From Tribonema minus (Eukaryota; Sar; Xanthophyceae; Tribonematales; Tribonemataceae): a DNA stretch of 64,000 nucleotides. Below, in pieces: positions 855-62,554 of this stretch. Within the stretch, counting starts at the first letter, position 1, and every line of letters begins with the position of its first letter. A model generated the notes under the pieces. It had not been told where the DNA came from. It did no database searches and worked only from the letters and a program-made list of their open reading frames with translations. A program made the position numbers and the translations under genes. Where the stretch lies: positions 186,001 through 250,000 of the forward strand of contig JAFCMP010000099.1 in assembly GCA_017506865.1 (NCBI GenBank), read 5' to 3'.

Positions 855-1290
855 CTATGAGGTTCTGCCACTTGACTTGGCCACCCGCTTCGACGCGGTC
901 CAGTTAACGGCGTGGTACTGGTCATGAGATTCTGCCACTTTAGACATTATGATATGCCAGGTTCTGCCACTTGACTTGGCCACCCGCTTCGACGCAGTCC
1001 AGTTAACGGCGTGGTACTGGTCATTTAAGCCTGCCTAGATGACCACATGAGAGATTCTGCCGCTTCATACTTCTTGATTTGTGAAATTCTGCCACTTGCC
1101 TTGGCCAACCGTTGCAATGCGTCCCACCCGCCGGCGGCGGCATGTTACTGGTCGTCACATGAGCCTGCCTAGATGTACATACGGGGCAAGCCTACATTTC
1201 TGATAATGCGTAAAAATCTTCCACTTGCCGTGGCCAACCGCTTCGACGTGTCCCAACTACCGCTGACGGCGTGGTACTGGTCATATGAGC
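855..1290 (-). repeat. donor-side exon echoes of oxidoreductase exon 5
   Basis: Four degenerate copies (near 858, 960, 1085 and 1208) repeat the last ~60 bp of the exon at 1358-1496 plus the start of its intron. Each carries CTTGRCTTGGCCAMCC and GGCGTGGTACTGGT. Spacing is about 100-130 bp. The GC donor context is retained in some copies. Confidence 0.8.
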
Positions 1291-1357
1291 CTCTCTACAT
1301 GTACACATGAGATTCTGCCACTGTATACTTCTTGATTTGCAAAATTCTGCCACTTGC

Positions 1358-4300
1358 CTTGGCCAACCGCCTTGATGCATCCCAGCTACCGCCGGCGGCG
1401 TGGTACTGGTTGTCGCTGGCGGCGCGCAGCGAGTACGCCATGACAATGTCCATCGGGTACTCAAGCACTGCTGCAAAGCTGCACGTCAGGATCATGCTGC
1501 GGCGGGGGGGGGGGGGGGGAGCGCGACGCGGGGCCTTGAGAGCAGCACTGGCCGACAATGTGGCTCACACAGGCACTGAGATGTGGTTTTGATGGTATGC
1601 TTTTGTTCACATAATTTGGAAGTATAGCCAACGTTACTAATATTTTTATCTGGTTGACGTCAAAAAAAAAAACAGTGCTTGAATGCAGGCTCCCAAGGTG
1701 CCACCCTGAAACCACAATCGGCTCACAATGTTCGCCCAGAGGTTGGGAGTGTCACTCATCACCCCTACGCAACACAGGAAGTGTAGTTCTGAAGGGCCTT
1801 GAGCCCTTTGACAAGCACCTCGCGAAGCGGTTTGTGCATTGCATCCGCCCTGCTTACATCAGCTGATGATCCGCTATACACAAGCAGGCGCGCTACAGAT
1901 GTTTTGCGTGGCAGCAGCCACAACGTCCGCCAAGAAACGACTAGGCAACCACGCAGTAGCGCTAGGCACCCGCCGACGCGTGTGGGCACGGCGTTCACAT
2001 GGGCGGCGGTCATGCCCTAACCCTACCCTACCCCTACCCTAAACCTGACCCTAACCTTGCCCTTAGGTGCGCACTTGGCGCAGCCGCTGCACGGCCTGCC
2101 GGGCATGACCTAGGGCTAGGGTTGAGCGTCCAGGTGTTGTCGACAACACCTGGGCGCACAGGGGGGGGGATCGCCCGGCGCGACTGTTCTGACATCTGTT
2201 GCGCGCGCGTGCGCGGCCTGCACGCTGCCCTCAAGACAGTTGCCAGCTTCAGTGCCAGTCAGCCTGAGGGCAGCCAGATGCAAGCATCCTTGCTGCCACT
2301 GCCCCCTGCGCGTACATGCTGGCTCCAGTACCTTTGCGCCGAGGCCTCTGGAAGTCACAACAGCGCACTCGTACGCAGCGACGCCAATTGCGCGTTGCCA
2401 CGCGGGTCCTGCCCTCTGCAGCCATGCTGGTCTCCAGCATGGTCATCAAGCCACAATCGCCGTCCTTGCAGCACTGCCCTTTTCAACTACATCCGAAGCA
2501 ATTCAAAGTATGCCTCTTCATATGCTCGCGGTTGCCGGTCTTGCATACATCACGAGTGAACCTCTTGCGACTAGCTAGCGAGCACTGCTTGCCCGCAAGT
2601 CTGCTCCCTAACCACCCAGGGCGAAGTTCCGTCTTGGTACTGCAGAATACTAAAGATTGCCATCAAATCATCTCAAACTGATTTCCCGCTTCTCTTGTAC
2701 TGAGCTGCGGCGCACTCGCCCTCCTTCCAGCCTGCACCAGGTTCAGGTCTAACAATGCCCTAAAAATTCCACTGCTGGTCTCATGACTGTACAGTAGCTT
2801 ACACGAATTCATCGTGGAATACAGGTCAAGTCCGCGCGCGTCTCGAATACGTGCTCCTGCAAGCTTTAGGGGTACCCTACAGAAGCCACTGGATCCCCTG
2901 GTGCGTCAGTGGTATCGGTGTGCTGCAATAACGTCATTTGCGGTCTTATTGATAAGTTACTGCCGGGCATCGAGAGCGCACATGTCCAGTCCTTACTGGA
3001 CCCGAGTGCGCGACCCCTGGCCAAGCCCTTCGCTGCCCTAAATCAGGGGCTTGCATCTTTTCCTTTGAAAGACATTCGCGCACGTAACCGCCCGTCACGA
3101 AATACGGCACTCGCGACAACGCAAACCAAACCCAAGGCACAGCGCACCTGTAGAGAGGCAGGAACACTCTGTCGACGTACTCTGAGGAGTTGGCCTTCGC
3201 CGCCAGGTACTGCCCCACGCTCAACGCGCACATGTCGGGGTCGTGCGCGTCGCACCTCACGTCATGAAATATGGCGCTTACTATAATGCGCATCCAACCC
3301 AACCCGACCTGCACCGTACCTGTACAGAGGCAGGAACACTCTGTCGACGTACTCCGAGGAGTACGCCTTCGCCGCCAGGTACTGCCCCACGCTCAGCGCG
3401 CACATGTCGGGGTCGTGCGCGTCGCGCCTGACGTCGCGGAAGTAGCGCAGGCCATCGCGCACGATGCGCGCTGCACGCAGCAGCAGCATTCACGCAGATG
3501 TCAGGTTCACAGTCCAAAACCTTTTAATTGATGATCAGAAGAGGTACCTCAGAGTGTGAGCAGCGCTCTCGGTCAGGTTGACAGTCCTTTCTGAGAAATT
3601 GATGACCGGAGCAGGTCACTTCTTCAGAGTATGAGCAGTGCTCTCGTCAACAGTCGAGCAGTACTGCTGTCAGCAGCACCATGTGACAAGGAGAGCAAGA
3701 ACCACCGCCAGCAGAGGCGCTGCTTGCACAGGCCCTGGGGTACAACTGATACTTCACAATGACGCCTCGGGGCGGCAACATGCACCTGCACATGAGATTA
3801 GAGTCAAGGACTGTGCTGTTGGCATAAAGAACCCATGTAGGCGCCGCTTACTCGCACAAAATTTACTGTACTACGACTTCACAGTGCACCTCTGGTCAGC
3901 TGTCAGCGCTTACTGTTGAGCGCTGGTGTGACTACCTGTCCTCATCTCTGCTTACTCGCACACAAATGACTGCACTGCGACCTCACAACGCATCTCATCA
4001 GCTATGCTATCAAGTGGTCACTGTTGAGCACTGCCGTTACCACCCGTCTGCATCTTGAGCCCGGGTCGCATCCGGCCAGGGAAGCATATCAAGCACAGGC
4101 TGGTGCGAGCGCCACTCATGATTGCGTGCGCGCTTGGGCTGGTTGATTCACAAAGGCCATCATACACATGGCCACGACACGTACTCAGGTGACCTACGCC
4201 AGGCATGACCCTGTCGCCTGCGAGAACACATTCAACACAGCCACAACACATACTCAGGCGAACTACGCCATGCCCGCACCTACATACCTGTTGCGGGCGA

Positions 4301-7300
4301 GAACGCGCGCCACAGCTGGCCCGGGAAGCACGGCAGGCGCCACCTGCACAGGCGCCGCTCGCGCGCAGAGGCCACAGGCTGATACGAAGGCCGCCCACAA
4401 AGACGTGCACGCGTGGGGTGAGCGATTCACCCAAGGCCACAACACACACGGCCGCGACACGTACTCAGGCGCACTACGCCAGGCAGATACATACCTGTTG
4501 CCGGCGAGAACGCGTGCCACAGCTGGCCCGGGAAGCACGGCAGGCGCCATCCGAACAGGCGCCGCTCGCGCACGCAGAGGTAGGCGCGCGGCGCGCCCGC
4601 CATCGAGAGCGAATACCCCCAGTCGAACGGCTCCACCGCGACGCCTGCGCGCCGAGTTCGGGAGGAGTGGCACGTATCGCAGGATCTGACGTGGAGCTTG
4701 ATGATAGGTCTGCTATGGATGGGGCATCGGCATAGGATGTGAGGGGGTGTGTCTGACAGCAAAAGAAGTCGACCGCTTTTACTACGACAGCGAGTCCCCC
4801 CAGTCGAACGGCTCCACCGCGACACCTGCGCGCGGGGCCAGGAGGGAACTGATGTGAAGCTTTCCGGTGGTTCAGCCTGGCGCTTATGGATGGGCTCTAT
4901 CACGCTATGGATTGCGCATCGGCACGGGATATGAGAGGGAGCCTGTGTGGTGTGCGCTGACTGTAAAATGAGTCGAGCGGTTTACCAGCACCCCCAGTCG
5001 AACGGCTCCACCGCGACGCCTGCGCGCCGAGTCGGGTCGGGAGGAGTGGCGCCCGCGTCACAGGATCTGACGTGGGGCTTTCCAGTACTTCAACTCGGCG
5101 CTCATGGATGGGCTCTATCAAGTGTTGCGGATTGCGTATCGACACGGGATGCGAGAAGCAGTCTGCACCGGGTCAGGAGCAATGCGCGTCCGTCGCAAGT
5201 AATGGACTCCAAGTAAACTGTATTGATGGCTGACCCTGGGTGTGTGGACAGGCTCGTCACCTGCCATAGACTGGCCATCAGCAGAGACTACAAGAGCGCC
5301 TTTGGCCAAGCTATAAGGAGCATTGGCGCTCTATCATGCGATTCAGGTTCAAAGAAGGGTTGGCAAGCCAATCGAGCAAGTAGACAACTGGCCGCAGACT
5401 CTGCGTCGTCAAGCCAGAAATCAGTAGCATATGGTGATCAGGTGCAGGCAGGAAGCTGCGGCATGGATGCGGGAACCTGCCGCTGCGGAAATACAGTTAC
5501 TGCGTCACACACGAGTGCCCATGCAGCACCCAACTGCCAGACGCATGCAAGGGGACCCGCCAGAGTCAGCTCAGGCCGCGTCGTTCACCCGCGAACTCAT
5601 ACATGGCCATGACATGCAGAGAGTACGCCCTGCTGAGGTGGCGCAGCAATGGATCCATGCCGTGCAGCTTGCGCCTTCACAGTACCACAAGAGCCATGCA
5701 GACCAGGCACCGCTGAGCAATTGCCGCATATGGCAAGCAGGTGCAGACAGCGCGTCCTTCCAAAGCTGATGTCACGGATGCGGTAGCCAAAGCTGATGCC
5801 GCTGTGTGACCAAGTGCTGCTGCCCGCAAAAGCGCCCGTGCACAGTCGCTGCTGCACGCACGCGAGCCCCCTTTCCCCCCCCCCTCCCCCACCCAAGTCA
5901 GCACGTCGGTTACCTGCGAGCTCGTACATGGGCCAAATGTTGCGGGTAGTACGCCCTGCTGAAGTTGGACGCACGCGAGCCCCTCCCCCCCCCCCTCCCA
6001 TGTCAGCCCGTCAGTTACCTGCAAGCTCGTACATGGCCATGAGGTGCGGGTAATACGCCCTGCTGAAGCTGCGCGGCGGCGAGTCCACGCGGTACGGCCG
6101 GCCCTGCGCATCCGCGCCCTCGCACAGGTCGATGCCCTGGCTGTCCAGCCCGAGCCGCTCCTGTACCGGAAGCAGAGAGAGAGAAAAGGGCATGGCAGTC
6201 AGTTGATGATGAATGCAGTCAGAGGGAGAAGATTGCCACAGAGAGAGAGAAGAAGGCACAGCAGTGACATCGCAGTGTATGCAGTCACAAGAAGATTGCC
6301 ACGCGCAATCAGGTTCACGCTTCGCGGCGCGTGAGCGTTCACATCCGTGCCGGGCGACTGCGCGTGTGCAGGTGTTGGGGCGCTGATGAGAGAAGGACTC
6401 CGGCCGTGCTCAACACAGACAGTGCTACACCACTACATTACTGCATTTATGACTGACGTCTGTCTCCAAGTGGTAGTGGTCATAACGCCTCCTCCCGCCC
6501 CCCGCATCTGCTGAGTTTGGTAAGATTGGGCCCCCCCTGGCCCCCACCCCATGCCATGTCCACTCCCTGCACAAGTTGTTGCTGTGCAGCCCGAATTCAT
6601 TGTGCATCCAGCCCAATTTGCTCCTGCAGCAGGATTGCGCTTGATACTGGACTCCGAAAGATGTCCCAGCGACAACAAACGATCACAATGTAGGTTATAC
6701 AAGCTCGCCGTGCACGTGTGCTGCCACACACAGGTGCATGCCCTGGGTGTGCAATCCTGTTGTGTGTGCACATGAATATTCAACATGCAGTCGAACCAGC
6801 TACATGATTTCCACATTGTCCGCAAATCAATACAGTATACTATATGTGGTTGCAGATTGTGCACTGTGCGGTAACTTTGATGCTCAACAAAAGAATGCAG
6901 TTTCAAGCGCGTCCGCAGCTGCCATTTTATATCATAGACAAGGTATGTCCTGGAAACAGTTTGCAGCTGGATCAAAAAGTGCTGCTGTGCTCTCGCGCAT
7001 ACATAGAACCACAAAGCAGCTACATACTGTCCCAAGCTTTAAACAGCAGAGTGGCATGTCTGAGCTGAGATTATAGATAAGACTTGGTATTATCCTGTTA
7101 ATAGTGAAGCTGCTTTACGTTGGCACAATGTGTGAGCATTTCCTCATCATAAACCTGTTCATGACCTTGGTATTGGGCCTGCAATTGAGTTGCTGTCAGC
7201 ATCACAGCTGCTAAATGCTTGCTATCGTTCTGCAGATGTTGTGCTGTCATCAGCAAGCAGGACTTGACCAGTAGCTTGGGCGTAGTAGGTACAGGGTGTC

Positions 7301-7862: not shown

Positions 7863-10800
7863 ATGCTGTCACTCACACGGCTCATAGTGGCTTCAACTCT
7901 AGCCAGCAGCAGCAGCGCACTGGTGAGGTCTTGCAGACTGGAGGGGAGGTGGCTTGCGCACAGGACAAGGAGACCAGGATTGGGAAGCAGACACATGGCG
8001 ACGGCCACGGAGACAGTGGTGCACAAGCAGCAGCACTCCAGCAGTGTCATGCTGGCTGCATCACTCAGGGGCGGAGATGACGGGCACATCATACGGGGCC
8101 CGCAATATAACCAGAGAGTTGAGGCCATCAGGCAACTTCTCGCTGGTGGCAGTTCAGCGACAGCGGTAGCGGTGGCAAAAGAGGGAGCACCAGCCGGAGC
8201 GGCCGGTCTGCTGGTGATTGCAGATTTCGATCTGACACTCACGGCGCCAGGGTCACTGCAGTGTCACCATATGTTTGGCAGGTGAGCCTTTGACGCAGCT
8301 CTTCAATCGCTCACAAGGCTTGTGCCTGCTGGCGCACAAACTTCAATACTTGAAAACTCAAAAGTTCTCATCACTCCCGCCGCGCCCTGCTGCCCTGTGG
8401 ATCGAAGCTGCCGATGGACCGTGCGTGTGTCAGGACAAACCTCAATATTTGAAGCACTTTAAGTCACCATTACTTTCGAGATGTACCTCCCGGGCGTGCT
8501 GCCGGGGGCCACGCGCCGCTGCAAACTCAAAGTTCAACAATTGAATAACTTCAAATTACTTTCCAGCTTGACTTGGCCTCGCGTTCTGTCGCAGATCGAA
8601 GCTGTTGACGAAACGCGCGCACATGGAGGTGTACCTTACAACCATGCTGCCGGAGGGCCAAGTCCCACTGCTTTAACACAGAGACGAACACTCGAAGAAA
8701 GTTACTGCAACAAAAACTTAAAGGACTTCAAGAGTTCATTAATTTCCAGTACCTCACAAATGGCTGCACCCTGCTGCCAGCGCAGATCGAAGCTGCTGAC
8801 GGACACTAACCGCGCGCACATGGAGATGTACCTCACCGGCGTGCTGCCTGAAGGTCACGCGCCGCTGCTGGCACACAAACTTCAACAATTAAAAAAACTT
8901 CAAGTTCTCATTAATTTCCAGTACCTCACAAATGGCTGCACCCTGCTGCCAGCGCAGATCGAAGCTGCTGACGGACACTAACCGCGCGCACATGGAGATG
9001 TACCTCACCGGCGTGCTGCCTGAAGGTCACGCGCCGCTGCTGGCACACAAACTTCAACAATTAAAAAAACTTCAAGTTCTCATTAGTTTTCAGTACTTGA
9101 CATTGGCCAAACCGTGATGCTGCTGTCACAGATCGAAGCTGCTCACGGACGCGAACCGCGCGCACATGGAGATGTACCTCACCGGCGTGCTGCCTGAAGG
9201 CCACGCGCCGCTGCTGGCGCACGGCGAGTGGTGGGACCGCGTGCACGCGCTGCTCGCTGAGCATCCGATGACGCGCAAGGACATCGAAGAAATGGTGGGA
9301 AACAAAACTATGAAAACAGTGAATACTATAGACACAAAACTCTGTGGAAATTTAGTGACCTGTTGTTGAATCTGTGGAAATTTAGTGACCTGTTCTTGAA
9401 GGACCGTGTGTGCACGCGCTGCTGGCAGAGCATCCGCTAACACGCAAGCACATTGACGAAGTGGTTAGGAAATAAATTGTGGAAGGTAGTGAAAGTAGAC
9501 GCAAATGTCTGGAAAAATGACATTTTTGGGGGGACTGCGTGCACGCGCTGCTCGTGGAGCATCCGATGACGCGCAAAGACATCGAAGAAATGGTGGGAAC
9601 AACATTATGAAAAACAGTGCAACTAGAAAAATTGTTGGAGACGGTGACATGCTTTTGGGGGGATGTGTCCACGGCTGCGCTTGTGGAGCATCCGATAACG
9701 TGCAAGGACATTCAATGAATATTTTTGGGAACAGACACAAAACATGGAAATGTTGAATTCTTTTTAAGGACCACCGTGTGCACACGCTGTTTGCGGAGCA
9801 TTTGATGACGTGCAATATTATTGTGTGGTGGGGGAAAACCTCTGGAAACTATTTGAAGTACAAACAATTTTCTCTTTGAAAGAACAGTAGTGGATTGGCG
9901 AGATAAACACTGTGGACCTGGCAATTTTTCGAAGGACGTGCGCAGGGCTGCTCACGAAGCCTCCGATCATCCTTCAGGACATTGAATAAAAAAGGTGAGA
10001 ACTGTTGACAAAATTCAACGCTTTCATCATCCACGCTGCACATTGTCAATGCTGTACTTCGAAGTACTTCAGATGCTTTGAGGTCTTTGCCACGCCTGCA
10101 CACCTCCCTCTCATACCTACCCTCTGATGCCTACCCCCCGCCTTGCAGGTAAGAGAGAACGTTGAGAGCGGCCAGCTGCGGCTGCGGCCAGGCACCGCCG
10201 ACTTCATCGTTTCCTGCAACACACTCCCTCTCATACCTGCCCGCTGATACCTGTGTTACCTAATCTCTGCCTCTCAGGTAACAGAGAACGTGGAGAGCGG
10301 ACAGCTGCGGCTGCGGCCGGGCGCCGCCGACTTCATCCGCCTGTGCCACAGCTGGGACATCCCGCTGCTGGTGGGTGCTGCGCAGCGCTGCGCACTTGAA
10401 CTCAATAACATGAACTCAATAATGTACTTGTAAGTAGGTACCCAGGGAAGCCGGTTCAGGGCGCGTGCTGATGACCTTCGAAAGGAACCTACGGACCATT
10501 GACCTCACTGAGTGAACTCACTGAGAGGATTGCTGAACTGTGTATGCATATGCTGCGCACTTGAACTCAGCAATGTCACTCGAAGTACCCAGGAAAGCGG
10601 GTCCAAAGCTTGTGCTGATGAGAGTCCTTGACATGAATCCTCAAGCGACGGACCGCTGAACTCATTCAGAGTATCGGCACCTCTGTATGCGCATGTTAGC
10701 TACCCCTGCGGGGCACATAAACTCGATACATACCCCTACACGCGTACCCAGGACAGCTGGTCCAAAGCTTATGCTGACGAGAGCCCTTGGTCTAGAGCTT

Positions 10801-13800
10801 GTGCTGATGAAAGCCCGTTTACAAGAGTTGTTCAGCTACGGACTACTGGACTCATGGAGAGGATTACCGTTATGACCTACAGACCACTGAACTCACTGAG
10901 AGATTGAGCGAACTGTGTATGCGTATGTCAGCTACCCCTGCGGGGCGCCAGGACGCATCGGGCCCAGTCGTCAAGTCAGTGCTTCGGCAGCGCTAAACGC
11001 GGGCTGCGGTTGAACCCTATCCTGATTTTTGGCAGTCAGGGCGTGTCTCCGCGGGACAGTGCGCCCTCAGAGAGGCGCAACATTGCAACACGCGCAACAC
11101 GCTGCAGGACATCCCCATAAATTTATCAAATTTATATATTTTAAAAGAGTAAGGAGTACAATTATGAAATCATCTTTGCTCTACCATATTAACCAATTTT
11201 TGGTGGAAGTACTGGTGGATGGCTTCGTGCAGCTGAAGTAGAAGAAAAATATGCTATAACTTGGACAAGTCCAAAAGAGCAAATTTTTGAAATGCCTACA
11301 GGTGGTGCCGCTGTAATGTTAATAGGTGAAAATTTATTATACTTAGCCTGAAAAAAGTACAATGCAAATATGTAGTTTGGCTTTGTCTTGCATCTCAAGT
11401 ACTCTGAAGTCAGTTTCTGGTTGATGTTTAAGTAGTGGAAAATAACCTGTAGTTGCGCTCAGAGAGCAAAATACCTCTTGTTATTCGTTTGGTGTTTGTA
11501 TAGAGCATCAGTTTTTGAAAGTCAGCAAAATTCTATATGAGTGTGCAATCAATAAACTTACACACTCATTGGAAGCACTCAATGGTTATGCTTCTGGAGT
11601 ATGAGCAACTGCTGATGTCGAGCGCTGTGACTGACGCTGCTCGTGCACCCCCACCTGCTCCTTGCAGCTTGTGTCAGCAATTACTGATGTTGAATGCTGC
11701 GACTGACGAAGCCCTCATTGCTGTTCGTGGCACCCCTGCCTGCCCCCTGCAGATTGTGTCAGCACTTACTGATGTTGAATGCTGCGACTGACGCCGCCCT
11801 CATTGCTATTCGCGGCACCCCCTGCCTGCCCCTTGCAGATTGTGTCAGCGGGTGTCAGCGACGTCATAGAGGAGACGCTACGGCATCAAGGTCAGCAACA
11901 CCACTGCAAACATCACTCAAGCAAGATGGAAGGGTGTCTTTAAATTCGTTGCATGTAGCTGCACGTGCTGCTGAGCAGTGCTGCCTGCATTGGCGCCGCT
12001 GGCGTGCTTGTGCTTCCTGTTGCTTTGAGCATGGATGTGCTAGCGTCATACTGGGTGGTACATGCATGCCCGCGACCTGCAGTGAAGTGTGGTGAATGTG
12101 ACATTTGAGATGATTCTGAAGCATCATACTCAATGTTATGGCAGCTGTAAGTCCAAATATAACCGGTTTTGTGTCAAATTCATCAGACCGCCCCTCATTG
12201 CTCTGGCATGCAATGCAGCAGTGCTCAGAGTTGGGGGATCACGTTCAGCCGCTGCATAGCGCAGTCATGCATTTGAAGGCTGGTGCCAACAGCACAACAG
12301 TTGATGGGCTCGGCCACTGTCACTGGGGTGGTTGATGCAGCATGCACTTGCGCAGAAGCACACGGTGCAGCAATGCGCTGTGCTCTCAGTGTGCCACTCG
12401 GCATCTGCACTGCACTTGAAGCGCACCACTTCATTCAGGCTGTACCCGCAATGTACTTTATAATTAATTTCGCTCAGGGCGCGAAAAAGCCCAGATGAAT
12501 GGCATCTAAGTTGAAGCTTGCTGTACGGAATCTACACGTCGTGTGACAGTCTGAAAGCGTCTCAACGACAACCCCGCAATGTACCACTGGCGATTCGCGC
12601 TGTACTCGCAATGTACTGTTTGCGACTGAGCACTGCCCCACGCTGATCTCCTGCGCACAGGCGTGCTGCTGCCCAACGTGCGCATCCACTCCAACAGCAT
12701 GGTGTACTGCGAGACGTCAGGCGGTCTCAAGGCGTTCTCCACTGCCGTCGTGCACAGCCGCAATAAGGTGACATCACCTGATGACAGGCTGCACATGGCG
12801 CTCTTGTGCACATTCTATGCACACATACAACACGTATAGACTAGTCGGATGTGTGTACTATGTGAAGTGTGTGATCAGGTGTACTTCGAGACATCAGGCG
12901 GGCTCAAGGCGTTTTCCACCGCCGTCGTGCACAGCCGCGACCAGGTGACAACGTTTGATGAGAGGCTGCTTTTGTGCACATGTTGTGCACATTTCATGCA
13001 CGCATACAAAACATTTACCAGTTTAGACCAGTCCAGTTGGCAGTGTATACTTTGCGAAGTGTATGAGCAGGTATGTACTGCGAGATGTCAGGTGGTCTCA
13101 AGGCGTTCTCCACTGCCGTCGTGCACAGCCGTAACAAGGTGACAACACTTGATGACAGGCTGCACGTGATGTGATCGAGCACGTGTTGTTGTATATAGAG
13201 AAGTACTTGCACTACTACTAGAGTATTCACATCATCGAGCACGTGCTTTTGTATATAGAGAAGTACTTTTGTATATAGAGAAGTGCTTAGACTACTCCTA
13301 GACTATGAATATTGGATTGTCTATACAATTGTATGGGTGCAATGCAAGAAGGTGGGCGGTCCCAGGGCGTTCTCAACTGCCTACGTGCACAGCCGCAGTA
13401 AGGCGGTTACGCGCAACAAGAGGCTGCGCTTAACGCAATCAGGCAGGTTTCGCTGGTATGAGACTTGCTAGTGTTTGTCGGTGTTGTCTGTGGATTCGGG
13501 GCGTTGTCCAATATAGCTGCCCATGCAACTTGCCAAACAACAGCTTATTCAATAGGCTTTAGGTAGGTGCTCTGTGTAACGCCTGCAGAAACCCCTAGAC
13601 TGCTGCACATGCTTGAAAGCATGCGCACACACTCTTTAAAGTGCCTGCGTTTGCAGAATTCTATGGCTGCGTGCTCCCCCTTCAATGCGCTTGTTGCTAA
13701 ATTGTCTTGTGCAACACCGGGTTGCCGGTGCAGGGACATAATTTTCTTTGAGCGGGGACGGCTTGCAGCCAAGACCCTGGCCCTACCCCATATTCGCATC

Positions 13801-16066: not shown

Positions 16067-16074
16067 TATCACTG

Positions 16075-16335
16075 ATCATATCAGGTAGTTGCGCTCGTAG
16101 TGCATCGTCACGGACCTCGTGCGCCATCTGACGGGCAGGGGGGCGCCCACGGCGGCGACGGCAGCGGTGCGGCTGATGGTTCCGCTGCCGCTGGCGCTGC
16201 CGCGGCATTGTGATAGGGCGCAGCGCTCAGACTGCGGCAGCGCTGCAGGGGCAGTGCTTGGTGTTGGCGGCGCCGCCGCCGCCGCCGGCGCTGCCGCGGC
16301 GTTGTGATAGGACGCAGCGTGAGAGTGCGGTGCGC
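16075..16335 (+). repeat. post-stop echoes of the nucleotidase last exon
   Basis: Two or three copies of the end of exon 7 follow the stop at 16066. GGACCTCGTGCGCCATCTGACGG, shortened here to GGACCTCGTGCGC, and GGTGCGGCTGATGGTTC recur near 16110-16185, and GGCGCTGCCGCGGCRTTGTGATAGG recurs (as GCCGCGGCATTGTGATAG and a variant) near 16198-16215 and 16291-16310. Each reproduces the TGA stop context, so the 3' exon end was copied like internal junctions. Confidence 0.75.
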
Positions 16336-16339
16336 AGCG

Positions 16340-18194: not shown

Positions 18195-18338
18195 AATTTG
18201 CCGAGCAAATTAATGACATCGCGCATGTTGGACCTCCGAACGCGTGTGTTTTTGTAGCTTGTGGCCTGCATCTCTTGCTGGTCTTTTGAGGTGCCTGCGA
18301 CTGACTCTCAACGCCTCCACACTTGCTGACGATTTCAG
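18195..18338. promoter_or_regulatory. short gap between divergent membrane-protein and F-box genes
   Basis: About 140 bp lie between the two divergently read frames. It must contain the 5' ends of both genes, so short first exons may hide here; an ATG at 18213 on the plus strand opens only 14 codons. I cannot place start sites. Its 3' end is the acceptor for the F-box exon, with a plausible branch point, CTGAC, at 18326-18330. Confidence 0.3.
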
Positions 18339-19353: not shown

Positions 19354-19451
19354 AGTCAAGACTCCCCCAGAGCTTGACTGTCAAAACTGAAATGACAACT
19401 GTGACAGAGCCTGGTGCCTTACTCTGCGCTGCCACTAAACAACAACTGCAA

Positions 19452-53647: not shown

Positions 53648-56600
53648 CTACACGGCGCGTACCGCGCTCTGCCCGCCGCCGCTGCTGCGCACCAGGATGT
53701 TGCCGGTAACCGTCTGGCGCACGTCGATGACGTACGGGCCGGTGCCGAGCACTGACACGGAGCCGAGCGCGGTGTCCGTCACGACGCCCAGCACGATGGT
53801 GCGCGCGAAGAGCGTGAGCGTGCGCGCGCCCTCGGGGCGCGCGACGAGGCCGCCCAGCACGCGGAAGCGCCCCACGCGCGCGCGCACGTCGGTGATGGTG
53901 ACCTGCGATGGGGGGGGTGGGGGGGTGGGGGGGCACAGTTCAGTGCACGGTTGTGTGTGTGTTGGGGGGGGGGGGATCACAGTTGAGGGAGAGGAGCGTG
54001 AGCGTGCGCGTGCCCTTCGTTGCGCGCGATGAGGCCGCCCAGCTCGCGGAATCGCCCCACGCGCGCGCGCACGTCGGTGATGGTGACCTACCTGCGCGGG
54101 GGGGGGTGGGGGGGGGTGAAGGGGGGGGGGGGGAGACAGTTCAGTGGTGGGTGGGTGGGTGGGTGGGGGGGGGGAGGGGCAGGGATGGGCAAAGTCGTGG
54201 GGGGGGGGGGGGGGGGCGAGGCGAGAGGCACAAGTTCGTTCAGTGCACCGTATTGCGGGCTGAGAAACGGGGCAGGGGGCACCTCGATAATTGCATGAGC
54301 GCGTACGCTGCACCGCTCGCTGCAGCAGCGCTCTACGTACGGCTGCGATGTCCGGCGGCAACAGTCACGGTACCGGTCTGAGACGACGTCTTCACAGTGC
54401 TTCAGCAGTACATGAGCTGCGGACTTCAAAGCGAGAACTTCGACAAACACTTACGTCGTCGACGACCGCGACGGCTGCCGTGGTGACCGTCACGGGCCCC
54501 GCCTGAGCGCTGAGGACGCCGTTGAGCCCTGCCGCGCGTGCGGTAAAGGTGTACGCGGTGCCCGTCGCGAGGCCCGTGAAGGGCACGCTGGTGGTCATGG
54601 CGGGGACCTCCTGCGACAGCGGCGCCGCCAGCGCCGGGCTGGTCACCTGGCAGAAAGGGGAGGGGGGGGGAGAGGGGTGTTAGGTTTATATAGAGGGAGG
54701 GGCGTGCGAAGGGTAGCAACGGGGGGAGGGTCGCGTGCTGGCTGATTCAGGCAATCGGCACTAGGCGCACAGGTATAGTGGGGATCGCTTGCGACAGTGG
54801 CGCCGCCAGCGCCGGGCTGGTCTTGTGGGTTGTGCCTAATCTGGGCGGGGTGCACAGCTCAGCCCAGAAAAAGTGCCATTTCAGAATAACTCAAGCACCC
54901 TCATATTAGTGGCATACTCTGCCAAAAAGCCTGTAGCCGCGATGCTGCTCACGGGGCGGTGTGTACGATTTGCGCTTGACTCAAAGATGCACTACCCAGA
55001 CTTCCGCCCTTCCAGCACGAGCTGCATGTGCAGCTATGTTCAGCGCACTGGCGTATGCACACCCTTGCTGCAATTTGTGAAAGGCGAGTTGCGCTTTCAG
55101 GTTTGCATAGACAACTGATAGTGCACCTGGCAACATAGGCATACTTGCATGCCCCCCTGACGTGAGACTCAGGCAGACGACACAAGCGCAAGCATGTCGT
55201 ACTTCAAAACCTGTTAGGCAGTTGAACTACTGCAGGTGACGCACCTGAATGATGAACTTCAGCGTGTCCAAGTTGACGCCGGGAACGGGCGCCGTCGCAG
55301 TGATGGCGACGTCAATCCTGCCGGCAACAGTGGGGCTGGCAACGGCGTTGATCACAGGCGGCAGTGCGGCGATGGCTCCGTAGAAGCCGCCATCTGCTTC
55401 AGGAAAGATCACAGTTGAAGTTTGGGTGAGTGATAGGGGAGCTGGCAGTAGACGTTAGGCAGAGCAACTTGCGGGCTCGCGTGTGGGGTGAGTTTGCGGT
55501 TTGAGGTAGGGTTTGAGTTAGCCCTAAATGAGCAGTATCAAGGGCGCGCCGCGCTGCTCTCCGCTGATGATCCGCTTGGCTGTTTTGCGGATCTCAATTG
55601 GAGTTGGGGCTACGGCTGCATCAGATGCCAGGCCGAGCAGCTTGAGGGCTGATGCGAGGGCAAGCCGAGGGATAACGCTTGCCCTAGGCATGTAAAATTC
55701 ACGCGGGCTCGAGCCACACTGCTACTGTTGTGGTCGGGGGGGGGTTAACTCGACACTCTCTCATGGGTGCGCATTCGGGAAGGTCGAAACGGCTGCCGCG
55801 TGGTCTGCGAACTGGAGTGTGCCTGTGCGGCTGCAGGTACTTTCCTAGATGACCCGACGCACGTGATAGCACAGCTGTTGATGTGCACCAGGGCTGACAG
55901 CAGTGATCCGCATATATGTCTTATGCCAGGGCTGGAAGCAGTGACTGCGTGTATTTCGCTGGGAAAATGTGACACTTTGGAGAAGATGTCTTGAAATCAA
56001 GTACGCTGTCACTATCGAGAACACGCCTGAATGAACTCCTATTGAAGTACATTGTCATGGTGAGAACACACCGTCAGAGCAGAGTGGGACCCGTCATCCA
56101 TGTGTAAATGTGTAAAAAGCTGCCGCCAGGGCTGGAAGCATCGCTACCGCATGTATTTCATGGGAAAGATTGTGAAGCTTTCAAGAGCACGTCTGAATGT
56201 CAATAAAGTCAAATGGAAGTAAATTATCATGACGAGAGCGCACCGACCGTCAGCGGAGTGGCACCCGTATAAAGTACACTATCACTTGCGAGAGCATGTT
56301 TTAACTTATAAAATAAGTCTTGATGCAGTACATCGTCATGGTGAGAACGCCCCGTCAGCCAAGTGGGACCTGTTGTTCTCGTACACGGGCCACTCGAGGT
56401 GCGCCCTGATGGCCCTGATGGGTATTGATGAAGTCTTTCAAATTGAGCCTCGTTGGAACATAATACATTGTCATGGCAAGAACGCACCGTCAGCCGAGTG
56501 AGACCCGTCGTTCTTGTACACGGTCCACTTGAGGTGCGCCCTGATGGCCCTGATGGGTATCGGGCCCGTGTAGAGGACGGCAGCGGCAGTGGGGAGGCCG

Positions 56601-59600
56601 GTCTGCACGAGCGCGTAAAATTGAAGTTGAAATTAGGGCTGGTTTTGGTCTTAGGTAAACTGAGCATTAGGGTTGAGGTACACTTCATAGTGGCGAGGCC
56701 AGTTGGCGAGAGCGCAAATTGTGCAAGGTAGAGGGCAGCAGCTTTTGGGTTAGGGTTTGGCACTAGGGCTAGGGTAGCGGCCAGGGAAGGCCAGATTGCG
56801 TCAACACAAACGTTAAACGGGAAAAGGGAAAAAAGTGCAAGAGAAAGTATGTTGCAGACACTGCACGGCAGCCATGGTGATGCAGTCAAAAAACACCTCG
56901 CTGGCGCTGATGGCACATGGGCCATGGCTTTTGTCAACAGGCCATTGGCATTGTGAAGAGAAGGTCTCCTGCCATGATGATCAGAAGACTTTGTGACATG
57001 AACAGTGTGCATCAATCACGGCACCTTCTTGACCCAGGCGGACTATCAGAAAGAGTGCTACAGCTGGGGGTAAACTGCACGGCAGTGTGCAATTTGGCAG
57101 CTGCGCTGTGCGCAGTGTTAAGTAGTTTGTTATTTTTACAAGACCTTTCCTCAGTGGACTTGCCAGCAGTCTTCGCGTGCATCGTGTGCACCAGACAATC
57201 TCTGTGTGCCTTTTGTGAGAACCACCGAGCAACAAGTTATGACACAAGCCAAATAGAGCAAGTGACTGATTCACACCCTTGCGATGGCAAGTTGTAGCAC
57301 GCTGGTGTGTGCGGACAGATGGATCGTCAGCATCGTCAATCGATATCGCAATGCACAAGACGTGTGCAGCGGGGCCCAAATCGAGTCAGAATCAAAGTGC
57401 ACAAGTCACTCGCGAGCGTGCTGGCGATGTCTTATCTGAATATGTAGCATCGTGCACCTCCTAGTGGAACACGTGTGCAGCACCGCTCGGAGTGAGACAC
57501 AAGTGAGTACATGAGTCACTCACCAGGGCTCAGCGCAAGTCCGAAGCGCGTAACACGAGTCACTCACCAGCTACACGAGTCACTCACCAGCGTGTTGACG
57601 ACGTCCGTGGCAACGGGCGTCACGGCGGCGTCGCTCGTCTCGGTCATGGTGTAGAAGATGTAGCCCGGCAGGCCGCCGGTGATGCTCAGCGTGAGCTCAT
57701 CCACGGGAGTGTACACCGCCGGCACGGCGGTGCCGCGTGGTGCTGTGCCACGCGCGCATTTTGACAGGTGGCAGGGACGGCGTCGGCAGCGGGGGCGGGC
57801 GTCGGCAACGGAGGCGGCAGTAGCAGCGGCAGCGGCAGCGGCAGCAGTGGCACAAAGTCAGGTGCGGTCGCAGAGCAGTTGCAGAGTTCTTGAAAAACTG
57901 GCCTCGGAATTGGAACCTCCAGAAGCTGCACGAGATTCTTGGAACGTCGCATTCACAGCACCATCACTGGCAGAAAGCAGGACCATTGCAGCGGCTGCCT
58001 GGTTTGCGCTGCGTCGCTGTTCTCGGTACACAATTGGCGCCAAAGCAGAGGCGTGCTTGTGCGCCGGCGTGCGTCCATCGTCTGCTTTGATGAACAAGTA
58101 CTCGCGAATGTGCATCAGGGAATTCATGAAAGCAACCCCAAGCGGACACAACCAACACTGATAAACGCGGCGTTGGCAGCAAATTGTGCACGCAGCGCTG
58201 AAATCACACGCCTTTGTTCACAACACACACACGCACAGCACAACACGCACAACAGGCAGCACTTCGCAGCCAAAGCAGACGCGGTGCACACCTGAGGCGT
58301 CGACGGCGAGCGCATTCGTCGCGCCGACGCTCGGCGCGACCGTTGCCGGCAGCAGCGCCGTCGCCGGCTCGCTGATGCGCACCGGCGGCACCACAGCCGT
58401 CCCCGTGATGCTGTTGACCTCCGCCGTATAGTCACGCCCCGCAACCAGCCCCGCGATCGTGGCGTGCTCCGCCCCCTGAGGGACCCCGGCAACGGCAGTT
58501 ACAACTGCGGGGGCCTGACGCACGCCGAGGACGTCTAGTGGCAGCGGCGGGAGAGTCACCGGCGCCGTGAGGAGCGCGTTGTAGGCGGTCACGGCGGGGG
58601 AGGAGGGGGCGGGCTTAGACTGCGCCCAGTAGACGTCGGCGGTGGTTGTGCTGGAGCGGATGACGGCGGTAGCGGGGGGCTTGGGGGCGGCCAGGAAGAC
58701 GGGGCCCTGCAGGTGGTGGGGGGGGGGGGGGGGAGATGAACATGGTTTGATTTAATGGAAGGTGGTGGTGTTGGGCAGGTTGGTATCTAGGGGCACGCCG
58801 ACTGTCATGGTACTGTACGCTGAAAGTTGCATGGCGTCGCTTTACGCCTGACATGCGCAGAGCGCTGCGTCACGCACCGCCGGGCACCCCCAAAAGCCCG
58901 GCCCGCCGGCCTCGAGGTACTTGCTGATGGTGATGCAGATGGCAAACGCGGCGGCGTCCTGCGCAAGCCACAACCCTTAACCCTCACCCTAACTCTAGCC
59001 CTAGCCATGTCCCCACCCTAACCCTGACTCTAGCGTGCTCACACATCGCGGGACAGCCGCCGAACCCCGGCTCGCCGACACCGACCTCGAGATTCTCGCT
59101 GATGGTGATGCAGATGGCAAATGTGGCGGCGTCCTGCGCGAGCCACAACCCTTAACCCTGACCCTAACTCTGGCCCTAGCCATGTCCCTAATCCTAACCC
59201 CGACTAGCGCGCGCTCACGCACCGCGGGGCAGCCGCCGAACCCCGGCCCGCTGACCTCCATGTACTCGCTGATGGTGATGCAGATGGTGAACGCGGCGGC
59301 ATCCTGACCCTAAATCCTAACCCTAACACTAACCTGGATCGTAAGCCCTAGCACTGGCTGGCTTAGATTAGGGTTAGGGTAAGTATTAGAGTTAACGCGC
59401 TCACGCACCGAGGGGCACCCTCCGAAGCCCGGCCCGCCGACCTCCAGGTACTCGCTGATGGTGATGCAGATCGCGAACGCGGCGGCGTCCTGCGCGAGCC
59501 ACGACAGCACGCGCGCGCCGCCGTCCACCGCGAGCTGCGCGAGCTCGCGCGTCGTGAAGTCAAACGTCGCGCGGAAGCGCCCGAGCCCCGGCCCCGTGCT

Positions 59601-62554
59601 GCCCGGGATGACCTCGAGGACGGAGGCGTAGCCGGCGCTGGCGACGAGGGGGGGGGCGGCGGCGAGGTTGAGCGCTGCGCGCACGTCGCGGCGCCCCACG
59701 ACGGTGCCTACCCAGTCCGGGTTGATGATGCGGAAGTCGAGGAAGCCCTGGGCGGTGAGGCTGGGGGCGATGGGGGGGGGAGGGGGGGGGGGGGGAGTGA
59801 GGGTGAGAGGCGTTCTCTAGTCTCTAGGCGGATTGCGCTCAAATGGAGGGAAGTTGGCACGGGTTTGAAGGTTTCATAGAGCGGAGTTCAGGTGCCTGCT
59901 GACAAGCTCAGCGCGGCCTTTCAGACATCCTCGAATGTCGCCCTGCACTGCACGGCGGTTGAAGTTTGCAGTGGCAGCATGAGTTTGTTGTTGTGCAAAT
60001 GTGCATGCCAGTTGCTAGTACAAAAGCGACCTGCGCTTGCCTCAGAGATCATGGCAGGTGCACAGGTGGAGTTGTTGTCTGCTGGCAGTACGTGCAACTG
60101 CTGTCAGAAGGCTAGGTCAGGGCTACAAAAGGTTTGTGGCTATAAAGCGCCAACCAGGAGCTCGAAAGTATGGTGCCTGCAGATTCCATGGTGCCCTCAA
60201 AGCTTATGTGGAATGGCCAGGGTTTACAGACCACGGCCACTGGCAATACGGAACTGCGCCAAGGTTGAGTCATCTTTCCTCCCGGCACCAGAGGCCAGAC
60301 GCACGCCAAACACACATCCACAGCCAAGGACACAGACAGCGCCAGCACACCAGCGGCACTCACGCGGTCTCCATGGTCCCCTCGAAGATCACGCGGAACG
60401 GCGCCACCGTCGCCGCCGCCGGCGGCGGTATGCGCGTGTCGATGAACGTGTTGACGAGGCGGCACTCGGCGACGTTCGCCGTGTCCACCTGCACCGTGAT
60501 GACGTCGTTCGCCACGAGGTCCGGCGTCACCTGGTAGTCGGCGACGGTGTCGATCTCGAGCTGCGCGAGCGCGGGCGTCGCGGGCGCGGGCGGCGGCGGC
60601 GCGATGCCGCCCCAGCAGATGGCTGCGGCAGCGGCAGCGGCGGCGGCAGCGGCATTAAGCACGTCAAACAGCGCACGCACATCACGGGGGCACAGGCTGC
60701 AACGGCGGCGGCGGAGGCGCTGGTGGCAGCGGCGGCAGCGGAGGCAGTGGCATGTGAGTACAGAGGCTGGCGCATGCAGATCGTGCGGTCAGCGATTGCG
60801 GCGGCAGCGGCGGAGGCGGCAGCGGCGGCGGCGGCGACGGCGGCAGCGGCATGTCAGCACAGCAACCAGCGCAGGCAGATTATGTGGGCACAGGCCGCAG
60901 CAGCTGCAGCAGATGGCTGCGGAGGTGGATGCTTGCGAAATGGCAGTACGCGGAAGCAGCCCCACAATCCACGTGTCTTTGGAAAGTGTACGAAAGAGAT
61001 GGGTGGTCGCCGAGTGCGCAACGGTGGGCGATGCCTGAGCGAGTGACCATGCCAAGCGTTGAACCTGACCAATACCTGAAGCGTAAAGGCTTCAACGCAC
61101 GTGGAAGCATGGATGCATACATCGATGGAGTGATTAGTGAGTAGCGCCTGGCTGCCCCAATCACGCGTGCTCACGTACATAGGGTCAGGGCCAGATCACA
61201 CGCACGCCTCCCCCCAGGCAGTCATTCACCCTCACACGCCACGATGCCGCGGCTGAGGACGGCGTTAGCTGCGGCAACGCGCCCGTCGTTGCAGTAGAGC
61301 ACGTTTCAGCGACACCGTCGAGCCGGAGGAGACACTTGCCGTGCTGCAACGCGGCTGCGGGCCCCCCACATTCACCTCAACTCTCAACTTCAAGTCCCTG
61401 CCCGGACGTCAACTCTCAACAACGGCGTCGAGCCGCAGAGGGTACCCCGAAGGCGTGCTCCTCAACATCCCGCAAGCTCTGCTCGGATTACACTGTCTTG
61501 ACGCTGCACACCCTGGCCTAGGCAGTCGCGCTGCGCCCTCATCTGACCGCCAGCTTGTGCACGTACTTGCACATTCGCAGTCACGAGGGCCCCAAGGAAG
61601 GCAAGATGCCCGGTGCGCGCGTGCAGCGTCAGTTCACACGCAGCAGCTCCACACCCCTGCGCCGTACTTTAGGAGCGTGCCCGCTGGCGCCGCCGCTGCA
61701 CACAGCGCGGCATTCCCGCTCTATCGCGCGCACTGTAACATTCACGTGAAGTTTGAGCTCACCACCTATTGAAGATAAAGTTGAAATTTACGCTCACCTG
61801 CGCTGCGCCCCAGGAGCGCGCTGGCTGGCGCCGCTGCAGTCCCGCTCCTTCGCGCGCGCTTCCAATGCACTTCAAGTTTGTGCGCTTCCGGTAATACACT
61901 TGATGTGTGCGCCTCACCTCCGGGGTGGTTGACATAGAACGCCACGTCGCCGCCGCTGAACATCGGATTGGCACTTGAAGTCTGCGCTCACCAAAATACA
62001 CCTGAAGTTTGCGCCTCACCTCCGGGGTGGGGTTGACCTCGATGCCATGCCACGTCACCACCGCTGAACACTGGAATGGCCGCTCCGACGTGCTGCGCGC
62101 GCCGCGCGTTGCCACTTGAAGTTTGCGCGCACCACCACCCAGGAATACACTTGAAGTTTGCACTCACCTCCGGGGTGGTTGACCTCGAACGCCACGTCGC
62201 CGCCGCTGAACACCGGAATGGCACCTTGAAAGTCCGCTCACGACCTATGTAATAAAGTTGATTTTTAAACTCACCTCCGGGGTGGTTGACCTTGAACGCC
62301 ACGTCACCACCGCTGAACATCGGAATTGCACTTGAAGTTTGCGCTCACTGGTAGTACACTTTGAAGTTTGTGCTCACCTCCAGGGTGGTTGACCTCAAAC
62401 GCCACGTCGCCGCCGCTGAACACCGGAATGGCCGCGCCGACGCGCTGCGTGCCGCGCGTTGCTATGAGGGCGCCGCGCTTGCCGGCATACTCTTGAAATC
62501 CCTCCACAGTCACAAAGTCACGGTCCGGGAAGAGGACAATGTTGCTGGGGGGCA
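53648..62554 (-). CDS. multidomain secreted/surface protein with RDFV-NHPG and fibronectin III-like domains, 5'-incomplete
   Basis: Nine minus-strand exons join in phase to about 689 codons: 62378-62554, 60364-60622, 59409-59760, 58292-58706, 57588-57742, 56488-56602, 55245-55393, 54455-54646, 53648-53902. The stop is at 53648-53650. Exon 1 here reads NIVLFPDRDFVTVEGF ... GGDVAFEVNHPG, and the next continues ICWGGIAPP and TPDLVANDVITVQVD. From memory, this RDFV...NHPGG-ICWGG module occurs mostly in bacterial secreted Ig/FN3 proteins. Exon 3 ends EYLEVGGPGFGGCP. Exons 4 and 8 look like FN3 domains (TTTADVYWAQSK, VTAYNALL; VPFTGLATGTAYTFTARAAG). Exons 5-7 carry YIFYTMTETSDAAV and VLYTGPIPIRAI, chitobiase-like 'YYT' edges. 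The last exon is VTITDVRARVGRFRVLGGLV onward. All eight donors are GT; acceptors follow long C-runs. The signal-peptide exon is missing, probably to the right. The function is unknown; binding or adhesion is a guess. Confidence 0.75.
53930..54225 (-). repeat. poly-G/poly-C tracts with an acceptor-side echo of the last exon
   Basis: 54000-54090 copies the first ~85 bp of exon 53648-53902 (CGCGCGCGCGCACGTCGGTG, ATGGTGACC). It is followed by G-runs of up to ~17 at about 53960-53972, 54099-54132 and 54160-54218. On the transcript strand these are C-runs preceding splice acceptors. Confidence 0.85.
54765..54835 (-). repeat. acceptor-side echo of the FN3 exon at 54455-54646
   Basis: A copy of the first ~50 bp of the exon: TGCGACAGTGGCGCCGCC, AGCGCCGGGCTGGTC. 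It stands 165 bp upstream in transcript order, where the splice AG context has diverged. Confidence 0.8.
56225..56445 (-). repeat. donor-side echoes of the exon at 56488-56602
   Basis: Two copies (near 56340-56440 and 56225-56270) repeat the exon's 3' half with donor: CGCACCGTCAGCC, GAGGTGCGCCCTGATGGCCC. The nearer copy spans ~100 bp at ~130-bp spacing and is the better preserved. Confidence 0.85.
57515..57590 (-). repeat. short donor repeats after the exon at 57588-57742
   Basis: The donor motif with its flank, CACGAGTCACTCACCAG, occurs three times in ~75 bp (AGCTGGTGAGTGACTCGTG on the transcript strand). Only the outermost gives a usable phase with the next exon. Confidence 0.8.
58855..59310 (-). 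repeat. donor-side echo array of the exon at 59409-59760
   Basis: Three ~180-bp units repeat the last ~90 bp of the exon (GARGTACTCGCTGATGGTGATGCAGAT region, encoding FAICITISEYLEVGGPGFGG) with its donor and a telomere-like CCCTAACCCT stretch. Divergence increases with distance: EYMEV, then residues altered at several positions. Confidence 0.9.
60622..60860 (-). repeat. GCN/GGCAGC triplet tract before the exon at 60364-60622
   Basis: Interrupted GCGGCAGCGGCG runs flank 60622-60660 and 60700-60860. On the minus strand they read as GCC/GCT/TGC triplets leading into the acceptor GCCGCAG. Confidence 0.75.
61790..62345 (-). repeat. donor-side echo array of the NHPG exon at 62378-62554
   Basis: Four copies (near 61910, 62015, 62165 and 62268) repeat the exon's last ~55-90 bp with donor: CTCACCTCCGGGGTGGTTGAC, shortened to CTCCGGGGTGGTTGAC, and GCCACGTCGCCGCCGCTGAAC. 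Their frames still read SGGDVAFxVNHPGG, so selection or recency keeps them close. Spacing is ~105-150 bp, with ACTTGAAGTTTG in every intron part. Confidence 0.9.

What the first reader, a model, noticed from the sequence alone, without database searches (positions are those of the whole stretch)
855..62345. Exon-junction 'echoes': degenerate tandem copies of exon ends inside adjoining introns
In four of five host genes, introns contain one to several tandem copies of the neighbouring exon's first or last 30-100 bp with its splice site. Clear cases lie at 855-1290, 3130-3280, 4785-5045, 8383-9085, 9395-9995, 12868-13405, 29785-30025, 56225-56445, 58855-59310 and 61790-62345. Copies occur on the donor side, the acceptor side or both, with divergence generally rising with distance from the exon. 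This suggests a mutational process that repeatedly duplicates DNA centred on junctions, lengthens introns and seeds cryptic splice sites. Caveat: exons are the easiest sequence to recognise, so junction bias must be tested against general tandem duplication. I know of tandem-duplication models for intron origin but not of this pattern.
Basis: partly seen in the sequence, partly recalled or inferred. Interest (0 to 1): 0.9.

Follow-up and report, generated by a model that had tools for sequence, protein, structure and literature searches.

The report
Tandem echoes of exon ends
In the yellow-green alga Tribonema minus many introns carry one to several decaying head-to-tail copies of the end of the neighbouring exon with its splice site; this looks like ordinary local DNA duplication that survives where it is harmless and keeps being re-copied where a conserved exon anchors it, so the genome records how introns grow.

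Summary
The window is contig C99:186001-250000 of a 158-Mb genome, Tribonema minus by an annotated protein on a contig of the same length. Tandem arrays overlap all ten listed places; shuffled sequence gave none. Tandem duplication is genome-wide. In 16 modelled genes 53 of 76 intron arrays span a splice junction; 44 of 129 good junctions carry one. In 51 good introns 36 of 48 arrays span, against 20.1 +/- 3.0 for uniform placement; counting only arrays also visible with exons masked, 23 of 35 against 13.3 +/- 2.5. The excess sits in multi-copy arrays (21 of 23); simple pairs visible in intron alone show none (2 of 12, 3.5 expected). The nearest copy is more similar than the farthest in 20 of 22 arrays. 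One paralogue pair suggests exon-echo gene conversion. Best reading: background duplication, filtered by selection, roughly 3-5-fold over-represented at junctions, then re-duplicated and homogenised against the conserved exon. Single junction-crossing duplications are known; multi-copy arrays on this scale did not appear in my nine literature searches.

The parts
8478..9131 (+). acceptor-side echoes: several copies of intron end + first ~90 bp of exon 9132-9294 of the 5'-nucleotidase gene
   Evidence: exon by P0001 and relatives
9132..9294 (+). real exon of the 5'-nucleotidase (UMPH-1) gene, echoed on both sides
   Evidence: tblastn of P0001, 100% over 9130-9297
9295..9815 (+). donor-side echoes of exon 9132-9294
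10095..10212 (+). acceptor-side echo of exon 10278-10370; annotated as an extra coding exon in P0001
11604..11838 (+). acceptor-side array ahead of exon 11839-11890; the unit takes in only ~11 bp of exon
12768..13403 (+). three donor-side echoes of exon 12661-12767; the first is annotated as an extra coding exon in P0001
14970..15807 (+). array abutting the start of a late exon of the 5'-nucleotidase gene (about 15800)
15948..16356 (+). array at the 3' end of the same gene; a second copy is translated at the end of P0001
830..1414 (-). array of about four copies with a coding-like right flank: probable donor-side echo of a minus-strand exon
   Evidence: no homologue tested
3087..3435 (-). end of a minus-strand exon (about 3320-3489) and its donor-side echo with GT and intron head
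   Evidence: found only at its own locus in the genome; no homologue tested
4604..5165 (-). probable acceptor-side array of a minus-strand exon
   Evidence: coding-like flank only, 2.6 against threshold 2.2
53807..54177 (-). acceptor-side echo of the last annotated fibronectin-gene exon (53651-53908)
54602..54822 (-). echo of the first ~50 bp of fibronectin-gene exon 54494-54655 (acceptor side; aligned part stops ~11 bp short of the junction)
56043..56560 (-). donor-side echoes of fibronectin-gene exon 56480-56602
58861..59505 (-). three donor-side echoes of fibronectin-gene exon 59409-59762
61866..62462 (-). several donor-side echoes of a fibronectin-gene exon (about 62378-62546); one is translated out of frame in P0135
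29806..30204 (-). three-copy array of the finding; exon anchor weak
   Evidence: coding-like flank only, 2.6 against threshold 2.2

Best explanation
The echoes are the visible result of a genome-wide process of short local tandem duplication (best-pair offset 63-241 bp in 95 of 122 sampled clusters). Duplications inside exons are lost to selection. Those that straddle one splice junction leave the protein unchanged, because the extra copy falls inside the intron when the outermost junction is used. Junction-straddling units are over-represented, roughly 3-5-fold in simulation. Once an array includes the exon, the exon, held constant by selection, stays a template: homology-dependent exchange (unequal crossing-over, slippage, gene conversion) keeps making and refreshing copies next to it and pushes older, more decayed copies into the intron, which lengthens it. 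Shown: the arrays, their junction excess, the gradient, the longer introns. Supported by one case: exon-echo gene conversion. Inferred: the selection filter, the anchoring step, why seeds favour junctions.
For: 122 tandem clusters in 20 stretches of 10 kb, 0 in their shuffles. 53 of 76 arrays in 16 genes span a junction; 36 of 48 against 20.1 +/- 3.0 in good introns, 23 of 35 against 13.3 +/- 2.5 when also visible with exons masked. Multi-pair arrays 21 of 23 spanning; simple pairs 15 of 25, or 2 of 12 when intron-only; same contrast counting intron-resident copies only, 14 of 16 against 9 of 18 anchored. Without gene models: 84 of 144 arrays in the window plus sampled stretches have exactly one coding-like flank, against 323 of 1440 random intervals, and 53 of 74 multi-copy against 31 of 66 simple arrays (4 arrays with both flanks coding left out). 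Gradient in 20 of 22 arrays. Paralogues L034/L035 share one echo with the same exon-side boundary and homologous intron before it, yet echo letters follow each gene's own exon at three sites. In simulations the best scores had a 3-5-fold junction preference; with homology-dependent re-duplication added, the share of multi-copy arrays and the lack of excess among intron-only pairs also came close. The splice model of L027 (8 of 12 good junctions echoed) is contained letter for letter, 504 residues, in the annotated protein P0015.
Against: Simulations with uniform seeds plus re-duplication alone, the simplest form of this idea, scored worse (log-likelihood -9.7 to -28.6 in 6 settings) than the best with junction preference (-6.4 to -11.9 in 7 settings; the ranges overlap), so an unexplained preference must be added. 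The score left out the multi-copy share, and simulation noise is large. The rotation test gave p 0.066. The exon holds its sequence, so echoes stay detectable longer than intron-only copies; masking reduces but may not remove this. Gene conversion rests on one echo and three sites. Only 16 genes, not chosen at random and of unequal behaviour: L023, L024 and L033 have no spanned good junction, and L024 and L033 no array at all.
Confidence: 0.5

Rival explanations
1. Only uniform tandem duplication: introns are short and units are 100-200 bp, so many units must cross a junction; selection removes exon-internal ones; the constant exon makes crossing ones easier to see.
For: Simple intron-only pairs show no excess (2 of 12 spanning, 3.5 expected). 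Uniform placement alone already predicts 20.1 of 48 spanning. Arrays without a coding-like flank are common (56 of 144). The rotation test is only suggestive (p 0.066).
Against: 36 of 48 observed, 23 of 35 when also visible with exons masked; multi-copy arrays 21 of 23. Uniform simulations gave observed/expected ratios of about 0.9-1.3 for spanning arrays against 1.5 (simple) and 2.1 (multi-copy) in the data; the uniform setting scored -13.5.
Confidence: 0.22
2. A mutational process aimed at exon-intron junctions (for example coupled to transcription, splicing or exon-placed nucleosomes) repeatedly copies about 60 bp of exon with about 100 bp of intron.
For: Exon part of spanning units is narrow: 49 of 53 are 11-93 bp; relative position differs from uniform (48 with known exon length, KS p 0.0016). 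Donor and acceptor sides equal (26 and 27). Pair offsets peak at 140-200 bp. Pure junction preference scored well (-6.7).
Against: Predicts that simple pairs visible in intron alone mostly span junctions (29 of 53 and 26 of 42 in simulation), observed 2 of 12; predicts few multi-copy arrays (16 of 92), observed 23 of 48. Exon parts below 9 bp cannot be scored, and a long exon part may be selected against.
Confidence: 0.2
3. Echoes are functional alternative or decoy exons kept by selection.
For: 73 of 94 keep the splice dinucleotide; two echoes are annotated as in-frame exons in P0001; third codon positions differ most (257 of 1796 against 125 of 1814 and 94 of 1813).
Against: That ratio (2.1-2.7) is nearer to what a free echo against a constrained exon gives than to the 5 or more expected if both coded (my estimate, no call). 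Relatives of the nucleotidase lack the extra segments (P0002, P0004, read by eye); P0135 reads an echo out of frame; the CCT-theta protein P0015 contains the echo-free model whole. 20 of 94 carry an indel in the exon part.
Confidence: 0.04
4. Introner-like mobile elements or other dispersed repeats.
For: Repeats inside introns carrying splice sites.
Against: Arrays are copies of their own exon; DNA searches of the whole genome with two arrays found only the locus itself (the tool skips very common words).
Confidence: 0.02
5. Assembly artefact.
For: Not checked against reads.
Against: Copies differ by about 5-30% with indels, occur in 14 of 16 genes on several contigs, and one echo is shared by two paralogues with homologous flank.
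Confidence: 0.02

Closest known systems
Tandem duplication crossing an intron-exon boundary in a potato RdRp gene (Ma et al. 2016, PMC4974935; abstract and outline seen)
   Same: A duplicated segment holds intron end + exon start; both copies carry the acceptor. The P0001 model of echo 10095-10212 has the same layout.
   Different: One event, interpreted as intron gain. Here: many genes, donor and acceptor sides, multi-copy decaying arrays, no gain of an intron shown.
Intron gain by tandem duplication of an exonic AGGT segment (model described in the PMC4974935 abstract and PMC2891723 passages; original authors recalled only)
   Same: Local tandem duplication supplies duplicate splice signals.
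   Different: Duplicated DNA there is exonic and becomes an intron; here an existing intron takes in extra copies and lengthens.
Direct repeats near intron borders (Rogers and Bendich 2025, PMC11782384; abstract and outline seen)
   Same: Repeats at or near intron/exon borders.
   Different: 4-30 bp repeats around the two borders of an intron, read as insertion footprints; here copies of one exon's edge at offsets mostly of 60-400 bp.
Introner elements (e.g. Amoebophrya, PMC7789003; search listing only)
   Same: Genome-wide remodelling of introns.
   Different: Dispersed element families (recalled); here the arrays tested are local and unique.
Degenerate minisatellite-like tandem repeats (general knowledge)
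   Same: Head-to-tail copies, homogenisation, size change.
   Different: Anchored on a coding exon that is itself one of the copies.

Membership tests
Local tandem duplication / degenerate tandem repeat | head-to-tail copies on one strand, more than chance | tested here: met
   0 clusters or pairs in shuffles
Duplication crossing an intron-exon boundary (potato RdRp type) | unit contains part of exon, splice site and intron | tested here: met
   53 of 76 arrays in 16 genes; alignments
Duplication crossing an intron-exon boundary (potato RdRp type) | a new intron is spliced between the copies | tested here: inconclusive
   only implied by the gene model P0001; no RNA data
Intron gain by AGGT tandem duplication | duplicated segment is exonic and contains AG/GT used as the new splice sites | tested here: not met
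   the 53 spanning units contain intron as well as exon; extra copies lie inside introns between conserved exons
Intron gain by AGGT tandem duplication | intron absent in close relatives | not tested
   no related genome was available
Introner elements | similar sequence in many unrelated introns | tested here: not met
   whole-genome DNA searches with two arrays found only their own locus; only two arrays tried, and common words are skipped
Tandem duplicated (mutually exclusive) exons | whole exon copied with both splice sites, coding constraint on the copy | tested here: not met
   partial exons, exon part 11-139 bp in 52 of 53; weak codon signature, indels in 20 of 94
Concerted evolution by gene conversion | orthologous copies share gene-specific variants with their neighbour | tested here: met
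   one echo in paralogues L034/L035, three sites within 9 bp; one case only

The most novel reading that the evidence does not exclude
A duplication process targeted at exon edges, coupled to transcription, splicing or chromatin, runs genome-wide in this alga; exons and their intronic echoes then exchange sequence by gene conversion in both directions, so decaying decoys in introns can feed changes back into coding exons.
Probability: 0.2. Interest if true: 0.85.

Novelty: new variant of a known kind. Interest (0 to 1): 0.6.

Why it matters
About a third of good junctions in 16 genes carry decoy copies (44 of 129). That is unusual raw material for asking how introns lengthen, how splicing tells the real site from decoys 80-100% identical in their exon part a few hundred bases away, and whether duplications favour exon edges. 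It also warns that gene models of this genome can contain echo-derived peptides: 2 of the 3 annotated proteins I looked at (P0001, P0135; not P0015).

Tried and rejected
A self-trained gene finder drifted to thousands of false exons and was dropped; exon models then came from family hits plus splice sites. Pfam scans of read-through frames found no usable gene (one sub-threshold TFIIA match). GC content as driver: in the two longest pieces it is equal inside and outside arrays (0.57/0.56 and 0.60/0.60), but in 4 of the 10 single 10-kb stretches it differs by 0.11-0.15, in three upwards and in one downwards, so GC is not excluded everywhere. Mobile elements rejected. Scripts that failed and were rerun: as 21; as 74. 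A first version of the placement test on 13 genes gave 28 of 37 against 15.2 and is superseded.

Rows dropped before counts: 51 of 75 modelled introns and 129 of 150 junctions were good enough to use (splice scores, no missing exon); two family hits were set aside as echoes before modelling; pairs below 42 bits and offsets above 700 bp were left out. Gene choice was not random: compact, well-hit CCT and kinesin genes, a myosin pair chosen for being paralogous, one more myosin gene, and the window's own nucleotidase. I had seen signs of echoes in the hit table for three CCT genes before fetching two of them. The coding-flank test is impure: 43% of 23 non-spanning arrays also have a coding flank, and it misses some arrays known to touch exons.
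Full report
WHAT AND WHERE. The window is bases 186001-250000 of contig C99 (274,207 bases) of a 158,181,000-base genome in 554 contigs. A search with the translated exons of the gene at 8-14 kb returned an annotated protein of Tribonema minus, a yellow-green alga, on a contig of exactly 274,207 bases (P0001); two further annotated T. minus proteins lie on contigs whose lengths match C135 and C99. So the host is a eukaryote with real spliceosomal introns. The host genes I could name are a 5'-nucleotidase (UMPH-1 family, about 8.0-16.3 kb, plus strand) and a fibronectin type III protein (53.7-63.2 kb, minus strand).

THE OBSERVATION. Self-comparison finds tandem arrays overlapping all ten places. 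Alignments show exon, splice dinucleotide and intron copied as one piece; for example the last ~116 bases of the minus-strand exon ending at 3320, with its GT and intron head, recur once (84% over 182 columns), and the end of exon 12661-12767 recurs three times downstream. Shuffled sequence (first-order Markov) gave no tandem pair or cluster at the same threshold.

NOT ONLY EXONS. Twenty stretches of 10 kb from the same genome (ten contiguous on C99, ten from other contigs) hold 122 clusters, 95 of them with a best-pair offset of 63-241 bp. Pair offsets over these and the window peak at 140-200 bp. Of 32 arrays in the window 18 have exactly one coding-like flank and 14 none, though at least four of the 14 do touch exons.

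IS THERE A JUNCTION BIAS? I built exon models independent of the arrays for 16 genes: six CCT chaperonin genes, six kinesins, three myosins and the window's nucleotidase, from family hits and splice sites (nucleotidase by P0001 and relatives). The check is strong for L027: its 504-residue translation is contained letter for letter in the annotated CCT-theta protein. Of 150 modelled junctions 129 passed the splice-score filter; 44 carry a spanning array; 76 arrays lie in the introns and 53 span a junction, 26 donors and 27 acceptors. For 51 good introns I collapsed arrays to one unit and asked how often a unit dropped at random would span a junction: expected 20.1 +/- 3.0 of 48, observed 36. 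The exon is held constant by selection, so its echoes stay visible longer; keeping only arrays also detected with exons masked gives 23 of 35 against 13.3 +/- 2.5. In a first set of 13 genes coverage by tandem copies falls with distance from the junction, on the acceptor side from about 0.5 within 250 bp to 0.05 beyond 600, on the donor side from about 0.4 to 0.17. A check without gene models, on the window and sampled stretches, agrees: 84 of 144 arrays, against 323 of 1440 random intervals, have exactly one coding-like flank, and the share does not depend on identity (0.60, 0.58, 0.57 in three classes). This test is impure, since 43% of 23 known non-spanning arrays also score a coding flank.

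WHERE THE BIAS SITS. Arrays with one similar pair span junctions in 15 of 25 cases (10.1 expected), but only 2 of 12 (3.5 expected) when the pair must be seen in intron alone; arrays with more pairs span in 21 of 23 (9.9 expected). Counting intron-resident copies only, 9 of 18 single pairs and 14 of 16 larger arrays are exon-anchored (p 0.03). In the wider sample 31 of 66 simple and 53 of 74 multi-copy arrays have one coding flank (p 0.0035). Against this: rotating intron-only coverage within 31 introns of at least 600 bp gave p 0.066, and genes differ greatly; L023, L024 and L033 have no spanned good junction.

AGE AND ORDER. In 22 arrays with two or more echoes the nearest is more similar than the farthest in 20. 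Of 94 echoes 73 keep the AG or GT at the copied junction and 20 have an indel in the exon part. Mismatches by codon position of the exon are 125/1814, 94/1813 and 257/1796, roughly what a free-drifting echo against a constrained exon would give by my estimate. Introns with arrays are longer: 34 with median 845 bp against 17 with 451 bp; 34% of 40,592 good-intron bases are tandem copies.

GENE CONVERSION. Two paralogous myosin genes on C79 (L034, L035) share the donor-side echo of the same exon: the exon-side breakpoint is the same and the intron before the echo is homologous in both, so the duplication is most likely older than the paralogues. Yet at three sites within 9 bp each echo carries the letters of its own gene's exon; at five other sites one exon has changed alone and at two the L034 echo alone. 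The simplest reading is gene conversion between exon and echo after the paralogues split. It is one case. It means that similarity to the exon may underestimate the age of an echo.

EXON PART OF THE UNIT. In 53 spanning arrays the exon part is 11-139 bp except one value of 636; 49 are at most 93 bp; relative to the range allowed by unit and exon length (48 with known exon length) it is skewed to small values (KS p 0.0016). Either breakpoints favour exon edges or long exon parts are selected against, for instance because they look too much like exons.

SIMULATION. Genes evolved with mutation, purifying selection on exons and tandem duplication, measured by the same pipeline, gave observed/expected ratios for spanning arrays of about 0.9-1.3 under uniform duplication; the data show 1.5 (simple) and 2.1 (multi-copy). 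In one search uniform duplication scored a log-likelihood of -13.5; uniform seeds plus homology-dependent re-duplication -9.7 to -28.6 (6 settings); a 2-5-fold junction preference with re-duplication -6.4 to -11.9 (6 settings); junction preference without re-duplication -6.7, but with too many spanning intron-only pairs and too few multi-copy arrays. The combination with a 3-5-fold preference fits best overall; the ranges overlap, noise is large and the fits are coarse.

MECHANISM, AND WHAT IS SHOWN. Shown: genome-wide short tandem duplication, the junction excess concentrated in multi-copy arrays, the similarity gradient, longer introns, one likely case of conversion. Inferred: that straddling duplications survive because the outermost junction is used and the extra copy is spliced out; that the conserved exon acts as a lasting template for further exchange; that seeds favour junctions 3-5-fold for a reason I cannot name.

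CONSEQUENCE FOR ANNOTATION. P0001 contains two echoes as extra coding segments absent from P0002 and P0004 and a further copy at its end; P0135 contains an echo translated out of frame (residues about 85-110); P0015 contains the echo-free model whole. Whether RNA supports these is unknown.

NOVELTY. My literature searches (listings only, with passages of one paper and abstracts of two) brought up single duplications across a junction and models of intron gain, not multi-copy exon-edge arrays over a genome. The library holds open-licence papers only, and the DOI that I recalled for a T. minus genome paper is not in it, so this is not proof of absence. I file it as a new variant of a known kind.

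Noticed in passing
window 11193-11348 (+): An open piece that reads like plastid PsaD (recognised from memory, not searched; sequence) inside a nucleotidase intron: probably a nuclear insertion of plastid DNA.
   Followed up: no
window 19064-23795: A Copia-like element (by eye): 1373-aa frame at 19452-23573 (-) between two 281-bp direct repeats that are 100% identical, so probably a recent insertion; it seems to split an ankyrin-type gene (frames at 18323-19108 and 23743-24216).
   Followed up: no
window 48533-53080 (-), with 38938-39230 resembling 48450-48725: A 1515-aa frame that looks like a non-LTR element (by eye, untested); DNA overlapping its end recurs at 38.9 kb at 71%.
   Followed up: no
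window 2015-2056, 58970-59200, 59301-59345: Interstitial telomere-like CCCTAA repeats (and by eye), in the fibronectin gene lying inside the echo array.
   Followed up: no
L006-L008 (C99:100001-130000): Very dense tandem arrays, 59-67% of bases within cluster footprints; no Pfam match at E<=0.01 in six frames of L006.
   Followed up: partly
P0001 and P0135: Annotated T. minus proteins contain echo-derived peptides, once out of frame; a proteome-wide check for short tandem peptide repeats at exon joins would be worthwhile.
   Followed up: partly
L024, L033 against L027, L032: Genes differ strongly: none of 8 good junctions spanned in the first two, 14 of 19 in the last two; reason unknown.
   Followed up: no
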